Source: a virus
DNA length: 22,424 nt
Virus record (IMG/VR): IMGVR_UViG_3300005511_000089
Coordinates: 1-22,424 of that record
Direction: 5' to 3' (one strand)
The notes under the pieces were generated by a model, which saw only the letters and a list, made by a program, of their open reading frames with translations, ran no database searches and was not told the DNA's origin. The position numbers were made by a program, and so were the translations under genes. Positions 1 to 16,442 of the stretch are shown here, piece after piece. Positions within the stretch are counted from its first letter, which is position 1. Every line of letters begins with the position of its first letter.

Positions 1-541
1 GCGTCTGATCGAGCACCAACACGTCCGGCGGCCCCTTGCCATCGTCGTCGCCGTACTGAATGAAATCGACCATGAGACGATTGTAGTCGTTCATGTTCGC
101 GATATGCGTGGCGTTGAAGTTGTCTGCGCCGCGCTCCCACCAAAGGACTGCGGTCGCGCCAGCATCGTTGGCCTGCTTGATGTACTTCTTCATCAAGTCG
201 AGGTTGCCCTGCACGACGTTGCCCGCCGGGGTCTGTTGCGCGATGGCGTTGATGATGCCGGTGAAGCAAATGAAGCGAGCGCCCGACGCAATCGCTGTAT
301 CGATCTGGCCTTGCCACTGCGACGGGTAGCTGCCCGAGACGGCAGCGACACCGAGCGAGATCAGCGGACGACCCTGCGAACGGCAGTAAGCCTCCATCCA
401 ATTCGTCCAACCGTTCGCAGCGCGATTGTACTTGATCGGGTCGAGATACTTCATCGCGTTGCGGCTATCGCCGACGTAGAAGATCGTGTTCTGAAAACGC
501 CGACGAAGGTTCTTGGCGTTGGAGGCAAGCCGGGTCTGCAT
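1..541 (-). CDS. SGNH-hydrolase-like protein, 3' end cut by window
   Basis: The reading frame opens at ATG 541 and stays open for 180 codons to the window edge, so the C-terminus is missing. Near the N-terminus is FYVGDSR, whose GDS (residues 24-26) matches block I of SGNH/GDSL hydrolases, with Ser26 the expected nucleophile. A glycine-rich block follows (SLGVAAVSG, about 62-70), then FTGIINAI (about 93-100), which resembles block III, with Asn98 in place but Ala after it where Asp is usual. The expected C-terminal D-x-x-H pair would lie outside the window. Such proteins deacylate or otherwise trim surface polysaccharide and are frequent on phage spikes. It follows the 46-aa and spike-base genes with a 15-base gap, which suggests a structural spike role. 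Function is inferred; the fold assignment is moderately sure. Confidence 0.72.
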   Translation of the reverse strand, partial: MQTRLASNAKNLRRRFQNTIFYVGDSRNAMKYLDPIKYNRAANGWTNWMEAYCRSQGRPLISLGVAAVSGSYPSQWQGQIDTAIASGARFICFTGIINAIAQQTPAGNVVQGNLDLMKKYIKQANDAGATAVLWWERGADNFNATHIANMNDYNRLMVDFIQYGDDDGKGPPDVLVLDQT

Positions 542-556
542 GGTCGGACCGTTCTG

Positions 557-697
557 TTAGGCGAAGTCGATAAGGAAGGCCCCGTCGTCATCGACGAGAA
601 TGAAGCCGTCTTCATCGACGACGAAGACGAAGCCGGACGGCGCGGCGAGCAACTGCCCCGTGGCCCGAGCAATCCCGAGTCCGAGACCGAGGCGCAT
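557..697 (-). CDS. small conserved-type phage protein (46 aa)
   Basis: This 46-residue protein starts at ATG 697, which overlaps the TGA of the spike-base gene in an ATGA junction; such coupling is the rule in this cluster and decides the start. The N-terminus (MRLGLGLGIARATG) is glycine- and leucine-rich, and the rest is acidic and hydrophobic (FVFVVDEDGFILVDDDGAFLIDF), with the look of short beta strands. Tiny proteins with similar LGLGL starts are often found between a spike-base gene and a surface-enzyme gene in proteobacterial phages; that comparison is from memory. It may form a short beta extension or connector in a spike. I do not recognise a defined domain, and no function is claimed. 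Confidence 0.6.
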   Translation of the reverse strand: MRLGLGLGIARATGQLLAAPSGFVFVVDEDGFILVDDDGAFLIDFA

Positions 698-948
698 CAG
701 ATCGCGCCCTCCAATCCGGCTGCGGTCGCGGCGGTGACGTGCGTCGCCCAAAGCGTGCGCGTTTCACCGGCGATGAAGCTGAGCGTGCGGCTCGCGCCGG
801 TGCGCTTCATCGTGACGGTAACGGTGCCATCGGTGTTCGCGCGGATCGCGCGGATGGGCGTCGCGAGCGCAGCGGCGCTCGGCACAATCGGCACCCAATC
901 GAGGGCGGGACCATCGAAGGGGACGGCGTAAGGATTCTCGCGGGACAC
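697..948 (-). CDS. spike base protein, RCAP_Rcc01079-like
   Basis: This 83-aa protein begins at GTG 948, with AGGA seven bases upstream. The pattern VPIVPS-x-x-x-AL (about 19-29), then PIRAIRANTDGTVTVT (about 31-46), AGETRTLWA (about 60-68) and a C-terminal TAATAAGLEGAI matches the small beta-barrel family named for Rhodobacter capsulatus Rcc01079. There, as I recall the published gene transfer agent structure, it is the base of a head spike. It ends in an ATGA overlap with the next gene and is followed by an SGNH-like gene, so the three look like one spike module. The start lies at the end of a strong stem-loop (948-985) that would cover the ribosome binding site. A tail location cannot be excluded. 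Confidence 0.7.
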   Translation of the reverse strand: MSRENPYAVPFDGPALDWVPIVPSAAALATPIRAIRANTDGTVTVTMKRTGASRTLSFIAGETRTLWATHVTAATAAGLEGAI

Positions 949-13226: not shown

Positions 13227-16200
13227 TTAACCCGTGGTGGACTTGACTGCGACGGCGCGGATGTTGCGAGCGTTCGACCGAGCGCCGGGGCCGCCGCCGA
13301 TCTTCACGTAGGCGCGCGACACCGCGAGGTTGACGTGGTCGAGCATGTACTGGCGCTCTTCCCAGCCGTCGCCGAGCGGCGTGGCCTTTTCGAGCGTCAG
13401 CGCATTCGTTGACGACCACACCGGCAGGCCCGCGTTGACGCCGGTCTGAATCTTCGCCTCGAAGGTCGCGGTGTTCGGCAGGTACACGTCGAGGATCAGC
13501 CTGACCTTCGAGTCGGTGCCCGCCTCGAAGGCGCGCGTGATGTAGTCACCGGTCGCCTGGATCGCGCCCGCCACAACCTGAACGTAGGGCAGCATGATCG
13601 GCCAGAGGTTCGCCGAGCCGGTCACGCGCAGACGGACCTTCAGCTTGCCGGTGACGGCCTGCGGGAGCGAGACGTTGACCGCCGGGGCCGTCACGTACTT
13701 CGCGCCGTTCGGGGCCTCGAACTCGACCTCAATAGCCGTGCCTTCGGGGCGCTCAGCCGCGAGCAGCGGCATGAGGTCCGAGCAGTTCACGACATCCAAA
13801 TCGCCGACTTCGATGGTCTTCGAAGCTTGGGCGAACTTGGCGCAGCGCAGGCGGAAGCCGAGCGAGCGGCCGGGCTTCGGCAGCCAGGTACGGGAGTCCG
13901 AACCGTCGAGGAAGGTGCCCAGCGGGAAGGCGTTGGAAGTCACCCAGCCGTTGATCTGGTCGAAGCCGCCCAGGTCAGCGATGGCAACCGAGTGGTTGGA
14001 GTCTTCGGTCAGAAGCGTAATCGCGTAGCTGCGATCCTCGCGCAGGGTGACGGGGCGCTCGAACGCGGCGAAAGTCCAATCGGACTCAACGCGGGGAGCG
14101 ACCGAGAGCGGGTCGATGACCTTGACGGTGTTCATGTCGAGGATCGACTCCGCGACGACGCGCTCGGTCGGAAGGCCAAGCTCGACCTCGCGGATTTGCA
14201 CGCGCACCGGCTTGCTCATGTCGCCGACCTTGGTGAACTTCACGTCCACGCCGAGCGCCTGCCGGGGCTCGCTCAGACGGAAGGTCTGTGCCAGCGGATC
14301 GGCGCTGTACCAATAGGTGGTGACGATGGTGCGTTCGTTGGTGATCGTGGTCAGCCAGCCGTAGGCGGTGTAGAGCGCGTTCGCGGTCGAGCCGCCGACG
14401 CCTTCGAAGGCGACGTGCTTCACGCCGACCGGGACGTTCGCCGGAATCTGGAACGACGAAGTCAGGGTGCCGTTGCCGTCCGCGCGGATCGTGCCAGCCG
14501 GGGTCACGTCGATGTCGTCGAACGTCACCTTCTTCAGGACTTCGTTGTAGCCCCACTTGTGGATCGTGAAGCCAACCGAGCGCTGGCGGATGGTCTCTTC
14601 CGCAACCGTGGCGCTGTTGACGATGCGATCCGTGGTCTCGGTGGACGTGCCGATCAGCGGGCCAGCGGCGAAGTTGGTGCGCTGCCACGCGACGCGCGAC
14701 GTGAAGACCGAGGTCCAAACATCCTGCGTGTCGGTCCAAAGATCGACGGACGGGTTGAGCGCAACGTCGGTCGCCGGGGGACCGAACGAAGCATAGGGGT
14801 TGATCTTCGACTCGCCGGTGATCTGGCGCTGCTCGAACACGTTCTCGAACGTATAGGTCAGCGTCGTGTCGGCGGGCATCGTCGTGACGGTCGGGATGAT
14901 CGGCAGCCACAGCAGGCCGCCGAAGATCGCGCCGTTCTGCGTGAGACCCTGATCTCGCATGTCGTCGTCGAGCAGCGGATCGACGAACACGCCACGCTTC
15001 GAAGAGACTTCCTTGCGGTCCACGTCGCGCTGAAGCCGCTCTTCGGCAACCAGCGCGTAGAGATCGCTGACCATCGTTTCGAGGCTGCGCAGATCGGCGA
15101 ACGGCATGCGGACGGTCGCGACCTGCTTGATGGTCGGGACGAGACCCCAATTGTTGTAGACATCGGCGAGCTTGTGCAGCGTCGGCGCGACCGTGGTCGG
15201 CTGCGGCGCGTACAGGGAGCTAATGCCCTTCAGGTACGAGATCACGCCTTGCTGATCGACCACGATGGCGTCATAGCGCGGCAGCTTGGTCTCATACTTG
15301 ATGAAGGCGGTCGTGTCGTCGGCCGCGCCGGTGATGTCGAAGCCATCGCGCGTGATGTTGGTCGGCTCGGCGCTGGTCAGGTAGCGATACGTGACCTGAT
15401 AGGTCGAGCCCGGCGCGACTTCCGCACCGCTCGGCGACCAATCCACGGCCGCGCCGGTCAGCTTGTAGTCGGCGGTCGGCGCGTAGACGGTCGCGCCCTG
15501 CTTGACCTGACGGATCGAGAGCACGGTCGGATCGGGCAGCGTGTCGGAGACGCCGGTATAGGTGCCGTGCGTCAAGGTCACGGTCTTCTCGGCGATGATC
15601 GTGATTTCCTTGATCGAGGCGATGGGCGCGAAGCGCACCTTGATCGTCTGCGTGCCGGAATTGACCGCGTGCGGTTCGTCGTCGAGCAGCATGATCTCGG
15701 GCTCTTCGGTCACGCGCAGACGTGCCGAAGCAGGCCGGGTTCGCTTGTAGCCCCAAACGTTGATCGTGCCTTCCGAGATGGTGAAGGTCTGCTTGCCGGT
15801 CTCGTCGAGGCCGAGCGCCTTGACGTTGAAGCCCTCGACGACGTAGCCGCCATGCGCCTCGCGGTCATAGCGCGCGAGCAGGTTCGCCCAGGCGTCGTCC
15901 ATGCCGGGCTCATTCGGCGTCTCGATAGTGCCGTCCTTGATCGTATAGATCGGGAAGAAGTCGCCTTCCTCGCCGTCGCCTTCATAGCCCCAGCGACCGA
16001 GCATCGCCAGCGCCGACGCGCCGGGCTCGCCCTGTGCGCGCGTGCCGGGGGCCTGCCCCTTCAGGGTCGGGTCCTGCTCATAGGTCACGGTGAACGTGCG
16101 CAGGCGGATGCCGATCACGACGATGCCGACAGCCGAGATGACGATGTTGCGGGCTTCGATGTCATGCACCGCGCCGCGAATGTAGACCTTGGCCGCCGCC

Positions 16201-16442
16201 AACTGCGCCTCAACGGTCGCGTTGATGATCGGCCCGAGCACGATGGCACCGCCGCTGACCAACGAACCGTCGCGCCAGAAGGCATCGGCGACGCCCTTCA
16301 GGCGGTTCGCTTCGATGTCCTGAATGACGTTCAGTTCGTTGCTGGTCAGGAAGCGGTCATAGTGCGCAGCGAGACGCTGGTAGCCCTTCGTCTTATCGAA
16401 GGTGTTGATGTATGCCGGAAGTTGGTCGCGAGCGTCTGCCAT
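13227..16442 (-). CDS. large DUF4815-type structural protein (baseplate/fibre)
   Basis: This 1071-aa protein is the largest product in the window. It opens with PAYINTFDKTKGYQRLAAHYDRF, SNELNVIQDIEANRLKGVADAFWRDG and GGAIVLGP, the pattern of the DUF4815 phage domain. The middle has FVDPLLDDDMRDQG (about 490), and the part around 700-830 has SADPLAQTFRL, followed by KPVRVQIREVELGLPTERVV, also seen in such proteins. The C-terminal portion is beta-rich, and may be a carbohydrate-binding or fibre domain (LILDVYLPNTATFEAKI). It starts two bases after the 232-aa gene and likely is a large baseplate appendage that carries the fibre. No enzyme motif was noticed. Confidence 0.85.
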   Translation of the reverse strand: MADARDQLPAYINTFDKTKGYQRLAAHYDRFLTSNELNVIQDIEANRLKGVADAFWRDGSLVSGGAIVLGPIINATVEAQLAAAKVYIRGAVHDIEARNIVISAVGIVVIGIRLRTFTVTYEQDPTLKGQAPGTRAQGEPGASALAMLGRWGYEGDGEEGDFFPIYTIKDGTIETPNEPGMDDAWANLLARYDREAHGGYVVEGFNVKALGLDETGKQTFTISEGTINVWGYKRTRPASARLRVTEEPEIMLLDDEPHAVNSGTQTIKVRFAPIASIKEITIIAEKTVTLTHGTYTGVSDTLPDPTVLSIRQVKQGATVYAPTADYKLTGAAVDWSPSGAEVAPGSTYQVTYRYLTSAEPTNITRDGFDITGAADDTTAFIKYETKLPRYDAIVVDQQGVISYLKGISSLYAPQPTTVAPTLHKLADVYNNWGLVPTIKQVATVRMPFADLRSLETMVSDLYALVAEERLQRDVDRKEVSSKRGVFVDPLLDDDMRDQGLTQNGAIFGGLLWLPIIPTVTTMPADTTLTYTFENVFEQRQITGESKINPYASFGPPATDVALNPSVDLWTDTQDVWTSVFTSRVAWQRTNFAAGPLIGTSTETTDRIVNSATVAEETIRQRSVGFTIHKWGYNEVLKKVTFDDIDVTPAGTIRADGNGTLTSSFQIPANVPVGVKHVAFEGVGGSTANALYTAYGWLTTITNERTIVTTYWYSADPLAQTFRLSEPRQALGVDVKFTKVGDMSKPVRVQIREVELGLPTERVVAESILDMNTVKVIDPLSVAPRVESDWTFAAFERPVTLREDRSYAITLLTEDSNHSVAIADLGGFDQINGWVTSNAFPLGTFLDGSDSRTWLPKPGRSLGFRLRCAKFAQASKTIEVGDLDVVNCSDLMPLLAAERPEGTAIEVEFEAPNGAKYVTAPAVNVSLPQAVTGKLKVRLRVTGSANLWPIMLPYVQVVAGAIQATGDYITRAFEAGTDSKVRLILDVYLPNTATFEAKIQTGVNAGLPVWSSTNALTLEKATPLGDGWEERQYMLDHVNLAVSRAYVKIGGGPGARSNARNIRAVAVKSTTG

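What the first reader, a model, noticed from the sequence alone, without database searches (positions are those of the whole stretch)
1..948. Possible capsid-spike module: Rcc01079-like base, 46-aa protein and SGNH enzyme
The 83-aa protein resembles the head-spike base of the Rhodobacter gene transfer agent. It is followed, with a coupled start, by a tiny protein and an SGNH-like protein with GDS and Asn motifs. In the GTA, base and fibre form head spikes that bind capsule. Here the fibre slot appears filled by an enzyme, which suggests spikes, on head or tail, that bind and deacylate surface polysaccharide. This would be a second recognition set beyond the baseplate fibres.
Basis: partly seen in the sequence, partly recalled or inferred. 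Interest (0 to 1): 0.58.

Follow-up and report, generated by a model that had tools for sequence, protein, structure and literature searches.

The report
Phage head spike with separate enzyme
A probable Bradyrhizobium phage carries a head-spike base like that of a bacterial gene transfer agent, a tiny adaptor that plugs into it, and a separate enzyme-like protein that the adaptor probably holds; relatives reuse the adaptor's tail end with other enzymes and fibres.

Summary
(1) The 83-aa protein is a head-spike base of the RcGTA Rcc01079 type: best PDB sequence match, six-strand model, and the two clear structural matches are RcGTA and Carin1 phage capsid chains (Z 9.3 and 9.9; next 4.4). (2) The 46-aa protein is the key part. 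It begins MRLGLGLGI, like the alternating Leu-Gly "star" with which the RcGTA fibre plugs into its base, and ends in a strictly C-terminal tag (GFVFVVDEDGFILVDDDGAFL...). The tag ends short proteins in 12 other lineages, with differing front ends. It is followed by an SGNH or SGNH-like gene in 8 of 13 lineages, a fibre-like gene in 2, another large protein in 1 and no effector in 2. These effectors share only a short start, M-x-(x)-T/S/P-R (10 of 11). (3) The third protein runs off the contig; it has SGNH-like motifs but stays below Pfam's cut-off.

Best reading: a split head spike, with base, star-and-tag adaptor and a docked esterase-like effector. Base and star are well supported; docking and catalysis are inferred. 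A new variant of a known kind.

The parts
697..948 (-). Head-spike base of the Rcc01079 type, 83 aa (GTG start)
   Evidence: PDB first match Rcc01079 E 0.0021; PHROG 12296; hhalign E 1.3e-7; model pLDDT 84.3 and structural matches 6tb9 and 8cjz
557..697 (-). Adaptor, 46 aa, coupled to the base by TGATG
   Evidence: tblastn match to Caulobacter phage DMCA gp23, E 1e-6, 52% identity; conserved in relatives
671..697 (-). Star peptide MRLGLGLGI at the adaptor's N-terminus
   Evidence: Same alternation as RcGTA fibre residues 2-10 (PMC7296036 passages); strict rule 11 of 24 post-base ORFs against 0 of 727 other ORFs
560..640 (-). C-terminal tag of the adaptor, two DxDG repeats
   Evidence: Found in 12 other lineages; exact C-terminus in 12 of 12 complete distinct sequences
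2..541 (-). SGNH-like effector, first 180 aa; cut by the contig end (431 aa in L004 and G407)
   Evidence: GDS and Asn motifs by reading; Pfam GDSL_2 E 0.0038, below cut-off; DGTH in relatives
530..541 (-). N-terminal tip MQTR of the effector, proposed docking half
   Evidence: Rule M-x-(x)-T/S/P-R fits 10 of 11 effectors and 30 of 727 background ORFs
464..472 (-). GDS motif (residues 24-26), candidate block I of SGNH hydrolases
   Evidence: Sequence; aligned at the start of the Pfam GDSL_2 model

Best explanation
The three genes build a split head spike on a contractile-tailed phage, probably of Bradyrhizobium. Five copies of the 83-aa jelly-roll base sit on each capsid pentamer (inferred from RcGTA). 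One copy of the 46-aa adaptor pushes its N-terminal star peptide (M1, L3, L5, L7, I9) into the five hydrophobic pockets of the base ring (inferred; the peptide and the RcGTA precedent are shown). The adaptor's C-terminal tag, two short DxDG repeats that end exactly at the C-terminus, then holds the next gene's product by its N-terminal M-x-T-R tip (inferred). That product is an SGNH-like hydrolase that probably removes acyl groups from surface polysaccharide during reversible attachment (inferred). In close relatives the same base instead precedes a single-chain fibre that starts with the star, so the adaptor acts as a converter from base to exchangeable effector.
For: Base. Star: (paper passages). 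A base of the same PHROG lies directly after the major capsid gene in a Flavobacterium phage. Tag conserved with differing front ends and always C-terminal. Tag next to SGNH or SGNH-like genes in 8 of 13 lineages. In 11 tag records searched whole, five PF13472 hits, all in the ORF after the tag (positions compared by me). Shared effector tip in 10 of 11, 2 of 2 in loci found after the rule was set. Exchange of the outer part on nearly the same base. A star fused directly to a weakly SGNH-like protein in Paracoccus phage Pben1 (Pfam E 0.073).
Against: Two lineages (L069, L090) have base and tagged adaptor but no effector gene next. In three lineages the next protein is not SGNH. The window's effector is below Pfam's cut-off, missing from a profile of the other effectors and without a usable model. 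No contact between tag and effector was modelled. L004's effector is 431 aa with a C-terminal part of unknown role.
Confidence: 0.6

Rival explanations
1. The base and the star-bearing adaptor form a small head spike, but the SGNH-like protein is not held by it. The tag does something else (capping, folding, binding sugar itself) and the enzyme is free or sits on the tail.
For: L069 and L090 carry base and tagged adaptor with a regulator-like gene next, not an effector. No contact has been shown.
Against: SGNH, fibre-like or other large effector in 11 of 13 lineages, with a shared start although the rest is unrelated.
Confidence: 0.2
2. The module sits on the tail: the base homologue has been moved to a tail position and the three proteins form side spikes of the baseplate.
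For: PHROG 12296 is annotated tail fibre. The gene lies after lysis genes, far from the capsid gene. In L064, L074 and L094 the tag occurs on proteins encoded beside tail or portal genes.
Against: The two clear structural matches are chains of capsid entries. In RcGTA the base is on the head although its gene is elsewhere (passages). A homologue follows the major capsid gene in a Flavobacterium phage.
Confidence: 0.12
3. Adaptor and effector are made as one chain by reading through the adaptor's stop, so that the spike is a single-chain fibre like that of RcGTA.
For: In the window, L004, L002 and L003 the two are in the same frame, five codons apart; in DMCA they are adjacent in frame.
Against: In L062, L063, L064 and L073 the genes overlap out of frame, so no single readthrough scheme fits; the stop here is TAA.
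Confidence: 0.03

Closest known systems
RcGTA head spike (Rcc01079 base and Rcc01080 fibre; GhsA/GhsB)
   Same: Homologous base with the same fold; next gene starts with the alternating hydrophobic-glycine star
   Different: RcGTA's fibre is one 325-aa chain; here the star protein is 46 aa and ends in a tag, and the outer part is a separate SGNH-like protein. Found in a contractile-tailed phage, not a gene transfer agent.
Carin1 bacteriophage mature capsid, chain 8cjz_h
   Same: Best structural match of the base model by VIA-align (Z 9.9, rmsd 1.7, 70 residues)
   Different: 16% identity; the DOI I tried for its paper is not in the library, so the role of that chain was not checked
Caulobacter phage DMCA gp22-gp23-gp24
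   Same: A 47-aa adaptor homologous to the window's, followed by an SGNH-type protein and preceded by a small protein
   Different: The small protein before it is not detectably related to Rcc01079, and the effector belongs to another subfamily (phrog_9703); annotated only as hypothetical proteins
SGNH tail fibres and spikes (coliphage G7C gp63.1, Klebsiella prophage fibres, Pectobacterium phage Possum gp66 with connector gp67)
   Same: SGNH-type enzyme on a particle for surface polysaccharide; Possum has a small connector protein (PMC13123978 and PMC9569702 passages)
   Different: All on tails; no star, no DxDG tag described in the passages seen
RcGTA TspA detachable tailspike
   Same: Separate, loosely held polysaccharide-degrading enzyme of a related particle (PMC13420450 abstract and passages)
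   Different: Beta-helix trimer on the baseplate, not on the head spike

Membership tests
RcGTA-type head-spike base (Rcc01079, PHROG 12296) | Sequence homology to Rcc01079 | tested here: met
   one profile test missed it
RcGTA-type head-spike base (Rcc01079, PHROG 12296) | Small six-strand jelly-roll fold | tested here: met
   Model with six strands, pLDDT 84.3; 6tb9_A1 Foldseek E 1.6e-3, VIA Z 9.3, rmsd 2.6, 72 residues
RcGTA-type head-spike base (Rcc01079, PHROG 12296) | Acidic residue at position 12 that binds a cation at the capsid | tested here: inconclusive
   Asp12 aligns with Glu12 (with the residue named in PMC7296036 passages); binding not tested
RcGTA-type head-spike base (Rcc01079, PHROG 12296) | Pentamer on capsid vertices | not testable with these tools
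   Needs particles
RcGTA-type head-spike fibre (Rcc01080) | N-terminal star peptide of alternating hydrophobics and glycines | tested here: met
   46-aa protein meets the strict rule
RcGTA-type head-spike fibre (Rcc01080) | Receptor-binding part in the same chain | tested here: not met
   The chain ends after 46 aa; so it is an adaptor with the fibre's anchor, not a fibre of this type
SGNH/GDSL hydrolase superfamily (the window's third protein) | Block I GDS and a later Asn, in order | tested here: met
   GDS 24-26 and Asn98 by reading; block definitions recalled
SGNH/GDSL hydrolase superfamily (the window's third protein) | Block V Asp-x-x-His | tested here: inconclusive
   Beyond the contig end; relatives have DGTH
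SGNH/GDSL hydrolase superfamily (the window's third protein) | Score above the Pfam cut-off of PF13472 | tested here: not met
   18.2 bits against 32.9; hence called SGNH-like only
SGNH/GDSL hydrolase superfamily (the window's third protein) | SGNH fold | tested here: inconclusive
   Model pLDDT 36.9, not usable

The most novel reading that the evidence does not exclude
A portable plug-and-socket of phage particles: a 27-residue C-terminal tag on small anchor proteins holds, without a covalent bond, any effector that carries an M-x-T-R tip. Phages use it to hang exchangeable esterases, fibres or other spike-like proteins on head vertices (through the star and Rcc01079-type or other bases) or on tails, by swapping one gene.
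Probability: 0.45. Interest if true: 0.75.

Novelty: new variant of a known kind. Interest (0 to 1): 0.6.

Why it matters
Head spikes that bind capsule are known in detail from RcGTA. Here the same base and star peptide occur in a contractile-tailed phage, with the receptor-binding part cut off and replaced by an adaptor and a separate enzyme-like effector. It offers a sequence signature (star N-terminus, DxDG tag at the very C-terminus) that finds such modules and their effectors among unannotated small genes, and a compact system to test how phages swap surface-polysaccharide enzymes. If the tag docks the effector, it is also a short natural coupling tag.

Tried and rejected
Tried without result: tblastn of the base and of the SGNH-like protein in 50,697 phage records and megablast of the whole window: no match. 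The narrow profile A1 did not list Rcc01079 (its top rows are designed Pizza proteins). The fused adaptor-effector model was useless. Three attempts to tie the window's effector to other SGNH proteins failed. The protein after the adaptor in G940 looked to me like a beta-helix spike, but Pfam and the PDB gave no match, so that is impression only. One search also listed G923, which is an aminotransferase-like protein and was dropped as false; one search gave two partial matches inside long ORFs, not followed up and not counted. One search listed five further matches of PHROG 12296 at E 0.001 to 0.01 inside longer frames (L040-L044), which were not analysed.

Counts: the 13 tag lineages are A window with L002, L003, L004 and G407; B DMCA; C L073 with L072, which ends at the contig edge and cannot be judged; D L075; E L062; F L063; G L064; H L069; I L090; J L074; K L094; G860; G940. 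Loci of the same contig fetched twice (L059-L061, L065-L068, L070, L071, L082-L089, L091-L093) were counted once. SGNH evidence by Pfam GDSL_2: C 1.1e-9, D 2.5e-9, E 6.6e-4, F 0.01, G 8.9e-8, G860 6.1e-16, A 0.0038 (window); B has no Pfam match and rests on phrog_9703 (1.3e-12) and its alignment with the others. Of these, C, D, G and G860 are above the curated cut-off; A, E and F are below it. The 24 post-base ORFs are window, L004, L005, L006, L009, L010, RcapNL, P8625, immuto, Pben1, Y25, L048-L057, L069, L075, L090; L002, L003, L007, L008 and L015 were left out as near copies, RcGTA because it comes from the paper. The tip rule was written after seeing the first nine effectors, so only G860 and G940 are held out.

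Considered and rejected: chance small ORFs (conserved in relatives with coupling); the plus-strand ORF 2..931 as a gene (it overlaps these conserved genes).

Papers: PMC7296036, PMC10218006, PMC8601537, PMC13123978 and PMC9569702 passages only; PMC13420450 abstract, outline and passages; all others search listing only. The claim that no paper describes an enzyme on a head spike rests on searches (0 papers), 79, 85, 133 and 134; subscription journals are mostly not held.

Full report
What is there. The window is one whole virus record of 22,424 bases with no end repeats. The virion genes run on the minus strand: Phage_cap_E-type major capsid protein, head closure and tail terminator, baseplate proteins, a 1,071-aa protein with a DUF4815 domain, tail sheath, tape measure, hub protein, amidase, spanin-like proteins, a metallophosphoesterase-type nuclease, and at the far end the three genes of the finding. 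It is thus a contractile-tailed phage. Two base relatives lie in named Bradyrhizobium genomes, and a genome drawn from the same genus matches the first 960 bases at 86.6%, so the host is probably Bradyrhizobium.

The base. The 83-aa protein matches Rcc01079, the head-spike base of RcGTA, in register over residues 7-74. It and Rcc01079 fall in the same PHROG. Two profile tests agree: hhalign E 1.3e-7, and first against 1,000 shuffles. One test did not: the profile of its closest relatives missed Rcc01079 in the PDB. The AlphaFold model (seven sequences, pLDDT 84.3) has six strands, the number that PMC7296036 gives for Rcc01079 (passages). Foldseek ranks 6tb9 first, and VIA-align gives Z 9.9 and 9.3 for chains of two capsid entries, Carin1 phage and RcGTA, and 4.4 for the next. 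RcGTA's Glu12, which helps bind a cation at the capsid, corresponds to Asp12.

The adaptor. [quoted passage not shown] Many proteins encoded right after a base homologue start alike: Rhodobacter phage RcapNL, Verrucomicrobia phage P8625, Flavobacterium phage immuto, Paracoccus phage Pben1, and others. A strict rule finds the star in 11 of 24 post-base ORFs and in 0 of 727 other ORFs; a lax rule in 16 of 24 against 11 of 724 (the sorting of the hits is mine). So the fibre slot is occupied by the 46-aa protein.

The tag. After the star the adaptor has only a short stretch ending GFVFVVDEDGFILVDDDGAFLIDFA. Its one significant relative in 50,697 phage records is gp23 of Caulobacter phage DMCA (E 1e-6). 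Scans with the adaptor and tag alignments found further tag proteins. In all 12 complete distinct sequences the tag is the exact C-terminus, and the pattern was not seen inside a protein in 760 kb. The front ends differ: star-like in some, in others no star, such as the 126-aa protein of L063 or the protein of L064 that follows a tail-tip-like ORF. Four lineages have an Rcc01079-type base before the adaptor (window 3e-5, L069 6.5e-21, L090 1.6e-10, L075 2.5e-7); DMCA and L073 have other small proteins there, not detectably related.

The effector. In 13 tag lineages the next gene is SGNH or SGNH-like in 8, a fibre-like protein in 2 (L074, L094), another large protein in 1 (G940), and absent in 2 (L069, L090). 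Searched whole, 11 tag records gave five PF13472 hits, all in the ORF after the tag (positions compared by me). The enzymes differ, yet 10 of 11 effectors start M-x-(x)-T/S/P-R; in 727 background ORFs the rule fits 30. The two loci fetched after the rule was written fit it (MIPTR, MVETR). One of these is a clear GDSL protein (6.1e-16). I read this as two halves of a docking contact; nothing here shows the contact itself.

The window's effector. It is the weak point. It has GDS and Asn in order, and relatives have DGTH further on. Pfam's GDSL match is E 0.0038, below the cut-off, and weaker or absent in relatives' stretches. It is not found by a profile of the other effectors, and the fold was not predicted usefully. 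I call it SGNH-like, about 70% likely to be a true SGNH enzyme.

Swapping. With nearly the same base, relatives carry a 459-aa single-chain protein starting MRLGFGIGLSYP (L006, L008, L015) or a 60-aa star protein plus a different GDSL protein (L005); more distant bases precede other star-starting proteins (L009, L010). A conserved anchor with exchanged outer parts is what receptor-binding modules show.

Mechanism and standing. Shown: homology and predicted fold of the base, the star peptide, the tag's conservation and C-terminal place, the linkage to downstream genes. Inferred: pentamer on vertices, star in pockets, tag holding the effector, and deacylation of surface polysaccharide. SGNH fibres that act as esterases are known from tails (PMC13123978, PMC9569702, passages), and RcGTA head fibres bind capsule (PMC10218006, passages). 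RcGTA's own biofilm-degrading spike TspA sits on the baseplate, loosely (PMC13420450, abstract and passages). I found no paper on an enzyme carried by a head spike. Hence: a known kind of spike in a new, split form.

Noticed in passing
L002 and L003, near 11232 (effector gene): The effector gene is frameshifted in these two prophage contigs, while L004 and G407 have an intact 431-aa frame.
   Followed up: partly
L099 4813-6218 and 2383-3609 (genome G860): A tagged adaptor and SGNH gene with no base beside them lie downstream of a glycosyltransferase gene in a cellular genome; RcGTA's spike genes also lie beside capsule genes.
   Followed up: no
L074 4562-6327 and L094 4929-7144: Tagged small protein after a long (790-aa) ORF that looks portal-like to me, followed by a fibre-like protein starting with a similar TRTL(S/A)NYLAS stretch.
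   Followed up: partly
L069 5038-5688 and L090 5082-6410: After base and tagged adaptor comes a GcrA- or HTH-type regulator gene instead of an effector.
   Followed up: partly
L005 10243-11688; Bradyrhizobium phage BDU-MI-1 (L028 4914-6218): L005 has a 60-aa star protein with a different end and a GDSL-type effector whose 70% relative in phage BDU-MI-1 has no such small gene before it.
   Followed up: partly
L075, L005 and DMCA effectors: They match phrog_9703, annotated head decoration, in their SGNH part; the source of that annotation was not traced.
   Followed up: no
window 13227-16442, minus strand: A 1,071-aa protein with a DUF4815 domain (E 1.1e-163) sits between the baseplate genes and the tail sheath gene.
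   Followed up: no
L009 7560-7610: The upstream start of the base gene is out of frame with its conserved part, perhaps an assembly error.
   Followed up: no
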